Part shown: in pieces, positions 6,164-10,708 of the stretch | Position numbering within the stretch: the first letter of the stretch is position 1 | Layout of the letters: each line of letters begins with the position of its first letter | NCBI GenBank assembly: GCA_016288215.1 | Contig: JAEEYQ010000046.1 | Location: forward strand, 1-64,000 | DNA: 64,000 nt | Reading direction: 5' to 3' | Source: Lentisphaeria bacterium | GTDB taxonomy: Bacteria; Verrucomicrobiota; Lentisphaeria; Oligosphaerales; Oligosphaeraceae | Notes under the pieces: model-generated | What the model saw: only the letters and a program-made list of their open reading frames with translations | Told to the model about the DNA's origin: nothing | Database searches by the model: none | Translations under genes and position numbers: made by a program

Positions 6164-6417
6164 GATGTTAAAGAAATTTTTGAGCTGCTGGCTGCAACCC
6201 AAGGGGGGCCAATGCCATGGGAGGGGCGATGGGCACTTTCGTCGTGACAATCTTCATTGATTTCAACCTGCTGATTTGATTATTTCAAAAGGACAGAGTA
6301 ACTTTTTGAAATGGACTGAAGACGATGGGCGCCCTTTTCCGGCGGAGGGGGTGGCTGAAAACCCACCGGACCATCCAGACCGAAACAATCCATCTTATTT
6401 CAGCAGAAGAAGTTCTG

Positions 6418-7272
6418 ATGCAAATCCAAGGTAGTCAAATGACAGATCAACCACAAGGCAAAGGGAAAGGCCAATTATTCTGGCGGCTGGAGCGCATGGC
6501 GCGTCCCCCCATGTATTTCCTTGGGGCGCTGCATTTTGGCTCTGCGGAGATGTATCCGCTCTCCGAATCTGTGCTTGCGGCCTATCGCAACTGTGATACG
6601 TTGGTCTTTGAGACCGACCTTGCCAAAGTAGCCTCAGCGGAATTCCACAACCGCATGGACAAAGACGGACATCTGGAGGAGAATGACCATCTCCGCAACC
6701 ACGTCAAGGCAGAGACATGGCAGGCTTTGGTCTCCCACGCCGTCCGTTTGGGATACACCGCAGAGTACATTGACCGTCTGCGCAGCTGGTACTGCGGGAC
6801 GCTTTTGACATCCGCCGCCCTGCGGGAGACAGGCCTGAGCTCCCATTTGGGGGTGGATGGCTTCATCTTTCAGCAGGCCTACTACAGCGGACGTCGCCTT
6901 TTCTTTTTGGAGACCCCGGAGCACCAGCTGGAGCTGTTGGAGACCATCAATGCCAATGAAGATGAATCGTTCATCCAGAACATCATCGCCGAATTGGATA
7001 ACATGCCGGTCTTCACCCGCCAGATGTTGGAACTGTGGCTTTCCGGAGACGCGGAGGCGTTAGGCGAGCTAATTTCCAAAGGCTTTTCGGAATGCCAACC
7101 GTTGCAGGAACGTATCTTGCGTGAACGCAATAGGTTATGGCTTGAGAAGTTCAAGCAGCTTAACGAGGCCGGCAACAGCATTTTGGCTGTTGTGGGCACG
7201 GGGCATCTTGTCGGCCACGGCAATGTGATTTCCATGTTGGCCACTCACGGCTATATTGTCACGAGGCTTTAG
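6418..7272 (+). CDS. TraB/GumN-family protein
   Basis: Member of the TraB/GumN/Tiki fold, whose best studied members are membrane metalloproteases or pheromone-shutdown factors. The family's GxxH motif is FLGALHFGS near the N-terminus, followed by LVFETDLAK, a central helical part, and the C-terminal LAVVGTGHLVGHGNVISML (GxxHLxGxxG). No signal peptide or membrane segment is visible, unlike most GumN proteins, so it is probably cytosolic. The frame is open from 6325. I place the start at ATG 6418, with ATG 6439 also possible, because the conserved part begins only at about 6481. It lies 65 bases before two SPFH genes on the same strand and may work with them. Confidence 0.75.
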   Translation: MQIQGSQMTDQPQGKGKGQLFWRLERMARPPMYFLGALHFGSAEMYPLSESVLAAYRNCDTLVFETDLAKVASAEFHNRMDKDGHLEENDHLRNHVKAETWQALVSHAVRLGYTAEYIDRLRSWYCGTLLTSAALRETGLSSHLGVDGFIFQQAYYSGRRLFFLETPEHQLELLETINANEDESFIQNIIAELDNMPVFTRQMLELWLSGDAEALGELISKGFSECQPLQERILRERNRLWLEKFKQLNEAGNSILAVVGTGHLVGHGNVISMLATHGYIVTRL

Positions 7273-7337: not shown

Positions 7338-8930
7338 ATGACTGAGTACACCAATACGCCACCGCCCGTGCCGCCCGCATATCGGCGGTCATCGGTTGCA
7401 AGAAAGCCGCACGGCACCGTGCCGAAAGTCGCGTTGTGGTCCACCGGCGTCTTTCTGCTTCTTGTGCTGCTTTTGGTCATCGTTCCTTTTTACGTGTGGT
7501 TTGGCTGTCGTATCGAGCCACGCAACGGAACAATTGCGGTGTTAATCCGAAAGACGGGCAAGCCCTTGCCTCCAGGGGAAATCATCGCCCAGGACAAATC
7601 GCAGCAAGGCATTCAGTTGGAAGTACTTGGAGAAGGACGGTATTTCCGCAACCCCTATGTGTGGGATTGGGAGATCGTACCCGTGACCGAAGTTCCGGCG
7701 GGACAGTTCGCCGTGTTGGTGCGGAAATTTGGCCGCAATCTGGAGGCGGGCCGCATCATAGCGCAGGATAAGGACTGCAAGGGCATCATGCCGGAAGTGT
7801 TGGGAACCGGACGGCATCGCATCAATCCGTATGCCTATGAAATCCACTTGTTTGACGACATTCGCATCCTGCCCGGAAACATCGGCGTCGTCACCAATCT
7901 AACAGGAGACGACATCTTCACGGGGAAGCCCAATGACCTTGACATGCAGAGCGGCTTTTTGGTCTCTTCGGAGCGCAAGGGCGTTGTCTCGGAAGTGCTC
8001 AAGGAAGGGACTCATCGTCTTAACCCGTTCATATACAATATCGTATCCGTCAATATCCAAAGTCAGAGACATGAATTCTCAGGGGCGGACGCCATCACCT
8101 TCCTGACCATGGACGGCTTTCCCATCTCCCTTGAAGGAACGGTGGAGTTCAACATCGATCCAGATCAGGCGCCGCGGCTGGTTCAGGTCGTGGGAGACAT
8201 GGAAGATATCCTGAAGAAGATCATACTGCCGTCGGTGCATGGCTTTGCGCGAATTGAGGGAAGCAAGAAAGGGGCGACGGAGTTCATCGTTGGCGAGAGC
8301 CGTCGGCTGTTCCAAAGCGAGCTGGAGAAGTTTCTGCAGGAGAACTGCAGCAAATGGGGCATTGAGATCAATTCGGTGCTGATACGGGATATCATTGTCC
8401 CGCAAGAAATTGCGGCAATCATACGAGAGCGGGAGCTGGCGCAGCAAGAGGCCAAGAAGTACACGCAGGAAATTCAGAGGTCCCGTTCCGAGGCGGAGCT
8501 GGAGAAGCAGAAGATGCTTGCGGAGCAGAATCAGAAGAAGACGAAAGCGGAAACGGAGAAGGTGACGGCCACCATCCAGGCCAAGCAGCGTGGACAGGAG
8601 GCGGAGATCAAGGCGCAGACGGAGCTGCAGGTGGCGGAGCTGGAGTACAAGACCACAGAGGCTTCCGCAAAGGCGAAGTTGAATGAGGCGGAGGCGCAGC
8701 GACAGGTCATTGCGGAAAAGAACGCGCGGGAGGCGGAAGTGCTGGAGCGCTCCGTCATGGCGTATGGCGGCGGCAGGGCCTATTTGCAGTCGCGGCTTTA
8801 TGAAAAACTGATGCCGAAAGTGCGTTCCATTGTCTTCAACGGTGCGAGCCATGAAAATTTCGGCTTGCCGTTAGGCTCTGGCATGGAAGGGGTTAACTCA
8901 GCCACTAAAGAGAATGGAGGGGAAAAATGA
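7338..8930 (+). CDS. Membrane-anchored SPFH (band 7) protein with tandem repeats
   Basis: A 530-residue flotillin/stomatin-like scaffold. A proline-rich N-terminus is followed by one membrane helix (about 31-54). Then come three tandem repeats of about 58 residues (about 64-121, 122-179 and 180-245), each of the form GxxAVLxRKxGxxLxxGxIIAQDK ... EVLGxGRYxxNPYxYxI. The SPFH domain follows (about 250-380, ITFLTMDGFPISLEGTVEF). A long charged helix or coiled coil (about 380-480) is rich in E, K, A and Q, and a small C-terminal cap ends the protein. ATG at 7338 has a perfect AGGAGG site. The last 4 bases (ATGA) overlap a paralogue, so the two are translated together and probably co-assemble. No NfeD partner is visible. 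Confidence 0.85.
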   Translation: MTEYTNTPPPVPPAYRRSSVARKPHGTVPKVALWSTGVFLLLVLLLVIVPFYVWFGCRIEPRNGTIAVLIRKTGKPLPPGEIIAQDKSQQGIQLEVLGEGRYFRNPYVWDWEIVPVTEVPAGQFAVLVRKFGRNLEAGRIIAQDKDCKGIMPEVLGTGRHRINPYAYEIHLFDDIRILPGNIGVVTNLTGDDIFTGKPNDLDMQSGFLVSSERKGVVSEVLKEGTHRLNPFIYNIVSVNIQSQRHEFSGADAITFLTMDGFPISLEGTVEFNIDPDQAPRLVQVVGDMEDILKKIILPSVHGFARIEGSKKGATEFIVGESRRLFQSELEKFLQENCSKWGIEINSVLIRDIIVPQEIAAIIRERELAQQEAKKYTQEIQRSRSEAELEKQKMLAEQNQKKTKAETEKVTATIQAKQRGQEAEIKAQTELQVAELEYKTTEASAKAKLNEAEAQRQVIAEKNAREAEVLERSVMAYGGGRAYLQSRLYEKLMPKVRSIVFNGASHENFGLPLGSGMEGVNSATKENGGEK

Positions 8931-10708
8931 GCACCACGGCAACAACAACGCAAAGTTCCCGTTCCGGTGTCATCACGGGACTCATTCTGCTTTTGGGCAT
9001 CCTGTTGATCGGGTGGCTGGGGTTCCAATGGCTCTTCTGCCGCTTTTATGTCCCTGCCGGAAAGATGGCCATTGTCACGGCCAAGAGCGGCAAACAGCCG
9101 GCTCCAGGCGCGATTTTGGTGGAAAGAGGGGAGAAAGGCATCTGGAAGGACGTGCTTCCGGAAGGGCGGTATTTCCTCAATCCCGTCCGCTATGACGTTC
9201 GGATTGTGCCGTCCTTCAATATTCCGTTGGGCAAGGTCGGCATTGTCATCTCCAAGATAGGCAAAGAGTTAGCTCCAGGCGAGATTATCGCTCCAGACCA
9301 TGACAGCAAAGGGGTGTGGCACGATGTCTTGGGGCCGGGCCGCTATCGTTTCAATCCAGAAGGCTATGACATTGAGATCATTGACGCCATCAACATTCCG
9401 GCGGGATATGTGGGCGTTGTGACGAGCCAGACGGGCAAGTTGCCGCAGACGGGTTCCTTTGCCGACATCGGCGAGAAGGGGGTGCTCAAGGACATTCTTC
9501 AGCCGGGGCTGTACTACATCAACCGCTATGCCTATCAGGTCAATGTGATTGAGATTGGCATGAACCAGGTGACGATGACCTCCGGAAACAACGGAGAGAG
9601 CATCTTCAACACGAAGACGCAGCTGGAGACCAATGACGCGTTGCAGACCCTCCAGATGAACACCATGCGCACGCAGCAGACGGCTCGGCTGTTGCAGAAC
9701 AGCACCCGAAACCAAAGCATGGACAAGGTCGCCAAAGCAGTGGAGTCCAAGTCAAGGGCGGAGTCAAAGGAGGGCGCCAAGGCCAAGCCACAAAACCGCA
9801 AACCCGCCCCGCGGGAAGATGTTTTGGCCAACGCCCTCAGCGATGACGCGCAGATTTTCGGCGTGAGCAAATCCGTGGAGTTTCCCTCTCGAGACGGCTT
9901 CAAAGTCTCTTTGGAGATGACGGTGGAGTTCGAGCTTCTTCCCGAACACATCGCGAAAATCTATCTTTTGTATGGTGATATGCCACAAGTGGTTGAGAAA
10001 ATCATCCTGCCTCAGGTCCTTTCCGTTTCCCGCCTAAAGGGTTCCAGCTACGGGGCGCAGGATTTCATCATGGGAGAGGGGCGCGAAAAGTTTCAGCAGG
10101 ATCTGCGGGAGGAGCTGGAGGCGACATTGGCGACGAAGAACATCATTGTCCACAACGCCATCATCCGTTCCGTCGAGATTCCAGATGACATTCTGAAGCC
10201 CATTCGTGATGTCAGCCTTGCCAAAGAGCAGGAGCGGACAAATGAGGCCAAACAGGAGACGGCCAAAAAACGCGGTGAACTGAACACGGAGACCGAGTTG
10301 ATTGAGCAGCGCAAACGGGAGACGCAGCAGGAAACGGAACGGCTGATCGCCATGATCGCGGCGGAAAGTCGACGTGAAGTGGCGGCCATTGAGGCAGAAG
10401 CGGCACTGAAGGTTGCTGAAATCAATGTGGAGAAGTCCACGCTGAAGGCGAAAACCGTGAAGCTGCAAGGGGAGACGGAAGTCAAGGCCAAGTTTGTCAC
10501 GGACAATGAAAAGGCCTTGGGAGAAGGCATGCGGGCGAAGGCCGTTGGCTCAGGAGATGTGCTCTGCGGTTTGAAGGCCGTTGAGGCGCTTAACCCTGAT
10601 GTGGAGACGCGGGTCATCTATGCCGGACAGGGAACCTTGTGGACGGATTTGGAAAAGGCTTCGTTTGCCCTGCCGGTTCCAGAGAAAGTTGATGAAGAGC
10701 GTAAGTAA
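8927..10708 (+). CDS. SPFH (band 7) protein, paralogue of upstream gene
   Basis: A 593-residue paralogue of the preceding protein. It has an N-terminal membrane helix (about 15-38), then three repeats: GKMAIVTAKSGKQPAPGAIL..., GKVGIVISKIGKELAPGEII... and GYVGVVTSQTGK... . A polar insert of about 100 residues with QNRKPAPRED follows. The SPFH domain is at about 310-420 (VEFPSRDGFKVSLEMTVEF) and a long alanine/glutamate-rich helix at about 425-530. The C-terminal part LCGLKAVEALNPDVETRVIYAGQGTLWTDL resembles the cap of large SPFH proteins. Start and overlap (ATGA at 8927) tie it to the upstream gene. Likely a hetero-oligomer at the inner membrane. The substrate or role (membrane domain organisation, protease control) is inference. 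Confidence 0.85.
   Translation: MSTTATTTQSSRSGVITGLILLLGILLIGWLGFQWLFCRFYVPAGKMAIVTAKSGKQPAPGAILVERGEKGIWKDVLPEGRYFLNPVRYDVRIVPSFNIPLGKVGIVISKIGKELAPGEIIAPDHDSKGVWHDVLGPGRYRFNPEGYDIEIIDAINIPAGYVGVVTSQTGKLPQTGSFADIGEKGVLKDILQPGLYYINRYAYQVNVIEIGMNQVTMTSGNNGESIFNTKTQLETNDALQTLQMNTMRTQQTARLLQNSTRNQSMDKVAKAVESKSRAESKEGAKAKPQNRKPAPREDVLANALSDDAQIFGVSKSVEFPSRDGFKVSLEMTVEFELLPEHIAKIYLLYGDMPQVVEKIILPQVLSVSRLKGSSYGAQDFIMGEGREKFQQDLREELEATLATKNIIVHNAIIRSVEIPDDILKPIRDVSLAKEQERTNEAKQETAKKRGELNTETELIEQRKRETQQETERLIAMIAAESRREVAAIEAEAALKVAEINVEKSTLKAKTVKLQGETEVKAKFVTDNEKALGEGMRAKAVGSGDVLCGLKAVEALNPDVETRVIYAGQGTLWTDLEKASFALPVPEKVDEERK

What the first reader, a model, noticed from the sequence alone, without database searches (positions are those of the whole stretch)
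7338..10708. SPFH pair with vault-like tandem repeats
Each protein has one membrane helix, three tandem repeats of about 57-58 residues, an SPFH domain, a long helix and a small cap. The repeats carry a GxGRYxxNPYxY-type turn and a starting GxxAVLxxKxG strand. Repeat arrays of this length leading to an SPFH shoulder, a long helix and a cap are also the layout of the eukaryotic major vault protein. This bacterial version is membrane-anchored and occurs as an overlapping gene pair. A shared ancestry with vaults is a hypothesis; the repeats themselves are visible.
Basis: partly seen in the sequence, partly recalled or inferred. Interest (0 to 1): 0.6.

Follow-up and report, generated by a model that had tools for sequence, protein, structure and literature searches.

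The report
Membrane SPFH pair with vault-like repeats
Two neighbouring bacterial genes encode membrane-anchored scaffold proteins whose outer wall is built from three copies of a small module that, in predicted shape, matches the wall repeats of the eukaryotic vault particle; this matters because vault repeats have been described as unique to vaults, but common ancestry is not shown.

Summary
At 7338-10708 lie two SPFH (Band_7) genes, A and B, overlapping by 4 bp. Each has one N-terminal membrane helix, three homologous ~60-residue modules, an SPFH2 domain and a long helix. One correction: the third module is the SPFH1 half of the SPFH domain itself, so the novelty is two extra SPFH1-type modules. 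All 148 relatives checked have exactly three, and 49 of 70 gene pairs keep the exact 4-bp overlap. The family occurs in 80 of 388 sampled genomes of the phylum, plus a few MAGs labelled Desulfobacterota or Planctomycetota. AlphaFold models are confident over the modules. Foldseek against the PDB returns SPFH proteins only; major vault protein (MVP) is the one match spanning nearly the whole chain, is the top hit for B, and a crystal structure of MVP repeats R1-R7 alone also matches B. No sequence link to MVP was found, so shared ancestry is open. Beyond the finding: four-module relatives, annotated 'flotillin family' or 'SPFH domain-containing', occur in Rhizobium, Paraburkholderia, Streptomyces and Verrucomicrobiota. 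Most likely function: a heteromeric, membrane-seated SPFH cage with a lengthened wall, probably periplasmic. I found no prior description in the held papers.

The parts
7338..8930 (+). gene A, 530 aa membrane-anchored three-module SPFH protein
   Evidence: ORF; Band_7 7.5e-31; conserved family
7434..7505 (+). A membrane helix (residues 33-56)
   Evidence: AF2/DSSP helix; hydropathy
7506..7688 (+). A module 1 (R1, residues 57-117), extra SPFH1-like unit
   Evidence: hhalign; model pLDDT mostly >90
7689..7865 (+). A module 2 (R2, residues 118-176), extra SPFH1-like unit
7866..8060 (+). A module 3 (R3, residues 177-241) = SPFH1 half of the SPFH domain, with an A-specific loop
8061..8396 (+). A SPFH2 domain (residues 242-353)
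   Evidence: Band_7 212-386; model
8403..8762 (+). A long helix (residues 356-475; low-confidence break near 405-412)
8772..8810 (+). A short C-terminal cap helix (residues 479-491)
8927..8930 (+). ATGA start/stop overlap of A and B
   Evidence: same overlap in 49 of 70 family pairs
8927..10708 (+). gene B, 593 aa membrane-anchored three-module SPFH protein
   Evidence: ORF; Band_7 5.2e-17; family
8960..9037 (+). B membrane helix (residues 12-37)
9038..9217 (+). B module 1 (R1, residues 38-97), extra SPFH1-like unit
9218..9391 (+). B module 2 (R2, residues 98-155), extra SPFH1-like unit
9392..9562 (+). B module 3 (R3, residues 156-212) = SPFH1 half of the SPFH domain
   Evidence: Band_7 match starts at residue 156
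9563..9871 (+). B-specific insert between SPFH1 and SPFH2 with a helix at residues 237-278
   Evidence: family length 76-134 residues, median 105.5, against 10-11 in A
9872..10177 (+). B SPFH2 domain (residues 316-417)
10184..10546 (+). B long helix (residues 420-540)
10553..10705 (+). B C-terminal cap region, with GxGTLWTDL-type motif at 10625-10651
   Evidence: motif in 62 of 68 B proteins, none of 66 A

Best explanation
A and B are the two subunits of a heteromeric SPFH cage anchored in the membrane by one N-terminal helix per subunit (inferred from the HflK/HflC, prohibitin and flotillin precedents). Compared with HflK/HflC, two extra SPFH1-type modules lie between the membrane and the SPFH2 ring, so each subunit is a longer stave and the chamber wall is taller (inferred from the model). 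The long helices form the upper wall and the C-terminal segments the lid, as in other SPFH cages (inferred). The genes overlap, which would favour equal amounts of both subunits. The cage probably sits on the outer face of the inner membrane and encloses or segregates membrane proteins or a membrane patch, as proposed for other SPFH complexes. Its client is unknown. Shown: gene layout, module homology, family conservation, predicted module fold. Inferred: assembly, orientation, function.
For: Both proteins are SPFH. Confident module models: pLDDT mostly above 90 across the arrays. Foldseek: all 50 listed matches for A and for B are SPFH proteins or MVP. A and B are homologous over 455 aligned columns (E 2e-92), like the alternating paralogues of HflK/HflC, PHB1/2 and flotillin (PMC12624060; PMC11260169). 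B lies beside A in 77 of 80 loci, the other three ending at the contig edge, with the exact 4-bp overlap in 49 of 70 measured pairs. No other gene is conserved around the pair, pointing to a self-sufficient two-component unit. A1/B1 modules group together (95/88) and A2/B2 likewise (90/83, just under the cut), so the array probably existed before A and B split. Net charge before the membrane helix exceeds that after it in A (2.55 against 0.68), fitting N-in, C-out.
Against: No oligomer was modelled; assembly is by analogy. Orientation rests on a weak charge bias and B is ambiguous (1.63 against 1.30, and more K/R after the helix than before). The long-helix regions are only moderately confident. 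No client, protease or phenotype is known.
Confidence: 0.65

Rival explanations
1. The modules are real tandem SPFH1 copies, but the likeness to vault repeats is convergent: small antiparallel beta modules stacked in a stave look alike, and MVP's repeats have a different origin. (This rival concerns ancestry and is compatible with the best explanation of function.)
For: No sequence signal between the modules and MVP: no Vault Pfam model among the listed families of 134 A/B proteins at E up to 10; module HMM against MVP gives nothing while shuffled MVP gives chance hits; hhalign probability below 10%. TM-scores to MVP are low.
Against: The same comparison also finds no sequence signal for the SPFH2/shoulder pair, which is accepted as homologous by structure, so missing sequence signal says little. 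The order array, SPFH2, helix, cap is the same, and MVP R1-R7 alone matches B.
Confidence: 0.35
2. The pair is simply a local variant of HflK/HflC that regulates FtsH, and the extra modules only lengthen the periplasmic cage without new function.
For: Two-gene SPFH operon; weak HflK/HflC model hits (4.4e-6 and 6e-4); closest PDB sequence QmcA 8e-8.
Against: Scores are far below the HflK/HflC cut-offs (26 against 159 bits). The same genome has a separate run of three HflK/HflC-like SPFH genes on contig C29. No conserved protease neighbour.
Confidence: 0.25
3. A and B form separate homomeric cages or flat scaffolds rather than one mixed cage.
For: Stomatin and vault show that one SPFH protein can suffice (PMC12624060). 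B carries an insert of about 105 residues that A lacks.
Against: Strict co-occurrence and overlap and precedent of paired paralogues in HflK/HflC, prohibitin and flotillin.
Confidence: 0.12

Closest known systems
HflK/HflC (bacterial periplasmic SPFH cage)
   Same: two SPFH paralogues in one operon, N-terminal membrane helix, SPFH1-SPFH2-long helix-cap
   Different: one SPFH1 module instead of three; sequence far below the HflK/HflC model cut-offs; separate HflK/C-like genes exist in this genome
Major vault protein (MVP)
   Same: array of small beta modules, then SPFH (shoulder), long helix, cap; predicted module fold matches MVP repeats by Foldseek
   Different: 9 repeats, no membrane helix, 39-fold half cages joined at the N-termini (PMC13347060; PMC13100048); no sequence similarity found
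'Flotillin family' / 'SPFH domain-containing' proteins of Rhizobium, Paraburkholderia, Streptomyces and some Verrucomicrobiota
   Same: same module type in tandem, hit by the module HMM
   Different: four modules, single gene rather than a pair in the annotated examples, about 600-740 aa
SPFH11a/b subfamily of the 2009 classification (PMC2636767)
   Same: two SPFH genes always adjacent in one operon; reported in Chloroflexi, Acidobacteria, Planctomycetes, Deltaproteobacteria
   Different: SPFH11b lacks the coiled coil, whereas both A and B have a long helix; identity could not be tested because sequences are in supplements

Membership tests
SPFH / Band 7 superfamily (PF01145) | Band_7 profile match above cut-off | tested here: met
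   108 and 62.9 bits against cut-off 23.6; all 134 relatives match
SPFH / Band 7 superfamily (PF01145) | fold match to solved SPFH structures | tested here: met
   PHB, Erlin, HflK/C, stomatin, flotillin, QmcA among top matches
SPFH / Band 7 superfamily (PF01145) | ring or cage assembly | not testable with these tools
   no oligomer prediction or experiment
Major vault protein | Vault repeat or MVP shoulder Pfam match | tested here: not met
   no Vault/MVP model at E <= 1 for A and B, nor among the listed families for 134 relatives
Major vault protein | repeat fold | tested here: met
   MVP R1-R7 fragment (3gng, 3gnf) matches B at 7e-5 to 8e-5, 194 columns; whole MVP 1e-9 to 1e-10; TM-scores low
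Major vault protein | nine repeats and no membrane anchor | tested here: not met
   three modules and an N-terminal membrane helix
HflK/HflC | HflK or HflC equivalog score above cut-off | tested here: not met
   26.3 against 159.4 bits (A) and no hit (B)
HflK/HflC | single SPFH1 module | tested here: not met
   three modules
Flotillin (FloT/reggie) | Flotillin family model match | tested here: not met
   Flot PF15975 only in 2 of 66 A relatives, best E 2.5
SPFH11a/b | membership of the published 2009 subfamily | not tested
   accessions only in supplementary files, which could not be read

The most novel reading that the evidence does not exclude
Vault repeats are duplicated SPFH1 modules, and bacterial membrane-anchored SPFH proteins with three or four tandem modules are a surviving intermediate between ordinary SPFH cages and vaults.
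Probability: 0.3. Interest if true: 0.85.

Novelty: new variant of a known kind. Interest (0 to 1): 0.52.

Why it matters
[quoted passage not shown] Here are widespread bacterial SPFH proteins with both a membrane helix and a vault-like module array. That makes the origin of vaults, and how SPFH cages change height, directly testable in bacteria, including cultured genera such as Victivallis and Rhizobium.

Tried and rejected
TRF at DNA level found nothing, so the repeats are old protein duplications. Sequence-only search of the PDB with the module profile found no relative. MVP_shoulder search over 388 genomes found nothing but rang in no control either, so it is uninformative. MVP against plasmids: no match. 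Conserved partner genes (TraB-like upstream, HisD downstream): not conserved. The module profile does not recognise the SPFH1 part of ordinary HflK/C-like proteins in the same genome. Paper searches for tandem SPFH1 or vault-like bacterial SPFH proteins found no description; only open-licence papers are held.

Full report
What is there. The window lies in a 3.7-Mb genome of the same class as Victivallis vadensis (Lentisphaeria, phylum Verrucomicrobiota; class kinship of G009, whose contig has the same length and match position as the Victivallis vadensis contig L041). Two genes on the + strand, A 7338-8930 (530 aa) and B 8927-10708 (593 aa), overlap by the four bases ATGA. Both match Pfam Band_7 (7.5e-31 and 5.2e-17). 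Neither reaches the cut-off of any HflK, HflC or flotillin model.

The repeats. From family alignments of 66 A and 68 B proteins I cut three segments per protein. All 15 pairwise profile comparisons are significant (E 6e-8 to 4e-31). Column-shuffled controls on five pairs never score above about 20, against 39-90 for the real pairs. Every one of 78 A and 70 B relatives has exactly three modules.

A correction. The third module is the SPFH1 half of the SPFH domain. In B the Band_7 match begins at residue 156, profile position 2; in the A-family profile, positions 173-225 match residues 11-63 of a prohibitin (E 0.011, weak). So the proteins are ordinary SPFH proteins with two additional SPFH1-type modules inserted after the membrane helix.

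Order of events. In a tree of single modules (58 columns, so coarse) A1 groups with B1 (95/88) and A2 with B2 (90/83, just under the cut); A3 and B3 do not group. The likely reading is that the array came first and the gene then duplicated. A and B align over 455 columns.

Distribution. The A family is found at E <= 1e-60 in 80 of 388 sampled genomes of the phylum. A scan of genome contigs confirmed 255 stretches, 80 kept, including MAGs labelled Desulfobacterales, Desulfobulbaceae, Desulfobacteraceae, Syntrophobacteraceae and Planctomycetota; MAG labels can be wrong. B is found beside A in 77 of the 80 kept loci; in the other three the contig ends. Of 70 measured pairs 49 have the exact 4-bp overlap. 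No other gene recurs around the pair.

Structure. AlphaFold2 gives mean pLDDT 82 (A) and 79 (B), with the module arrays mostly above 90. Each module has three long strands and short ones; MVP repeats are described as three-stranded antiparallel sheets (PMC13347060). Foldseek against the PDB lists only SPFH proteins and MVP in the top 50 for both. For A the ranking is prohibitin 1.0e-11, Erlin, HflC, then MVP 1.3e-10. MVP alignments cover 519-586 columns, the others at most about 440. For B the best match is MVP (1.1e-9, 612 columns). Most telling, the MVP R1-R7 crystal fragment, which contains no SPFH domain, matches B at 7e-5 over 194 columns, about three modules. TM-scores are low (0.14-0.29) and rmsd is large, as expected for long bent chains, and the tool gives no residue mapping, so the module-by-module superposition remains to be done.

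Sequence link to MVP. None. Pfam Vault models do not appear for A or B at E <= 1 nor among the listed families of 134 relatives. A human MVP sequence, checked identical to the PDB chain, gives no signal with the module HMM or with full family profiles. The best B-MVP local match aligns the GPG-Y turn of module 2 with GPGTY of MVP (probability 0.7%), which is a curiosity and not evidence. The accepted SPFH2/shoulder homology gives no sequence signal either, so the negative says little.

Four-module relatives. Searching with A also drew in proteins of 600-740 aa. The module HMM finds four modules in several Verrucomicrobiota proteins, in a Rhizobium 'flotillin family protein' and a Paraburkholderia SPFH protein and in a Streptomyces clavuligerus SPFH protein; one further protein (L128) shows three. 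Tandem SPFH1-type arrays are therefore a broad bacterial feature, and Pfam and NCBIfam give no model for the extra modules.

Mechanism. By analogy with HflK/HflC, prohibitin, Erlin and flotillin (PMC12624060; PMC11260169), A and B most likely alternate in a membrane-seated cage whose wall is raised by two extra module rings. The side of the membrane is inferred from a charge bias that is clear for A only. The genome has separate HflK/C-like genes, so this is an additional cage. Function (segregating membrane proteins or lipids) is inference from the superfamily.

Novelty. The held literature treats MVP domains as unique to the vault (PMC13100048) and I found no description of tandem SPFH1 modules in bacteria. 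The 2009 classification names an operon pair, SPFH11a/b, which I could not compare. I rate this a new variant of the SPFH kind; the deeper claim, that vault repeats are duplicated SPFH1 modules, is left open.

Noticed in passing
L119:1884-3770, L120:1656-3653, L125:1178-3028, L126:1109-3106, L131:3327-5366, L132:3336-5318, L163:2279-4228: SPFH proteins with FOUR tandem modules of the same type in Verrucomicrobiota, Rhizobium, Paraburkholderia and Streptomyces, annotated (where annotated) as flotillin family or SPFH domain-containing proteins.
   Followed up: partly
window 9563-9871: B alone has a conserved insert of about 105 residues with a helix between SPFH1 and SPFH2; role unknown.
   Followed up: partly
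window 10625-10651: Near-invariant GxGTLWTDL motif near the C-terminus of B (62 of 68 proteins), absent from A.
   Followed up: partly
L129 (G000:C29:5000-14500): The same genome has three adjacent HflK/HflC-like SPFH genes beside a gene resembling a P-type metal ATPase (named from sequence by eye, not searched).
   Followed up: no
L006:1333-2421, L007:1198-2244: Two further SPFH proteins in the genome end in what looks like a SHOCT-type tail (judged by eye).
   Followed up: no
window 6325-7272: TraB/PrgY/GumN-family gene (1e-52) about 65 bp upstream of A on the same strand; the neighbourhood is not conserved in relatives.
   Followed up: yes
L163:226-2246: Two TIR-domain genes lie directly upstream of the four-module SPFH gene on a Streptomyces clavuligerus plasmid.
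   Followed up: no
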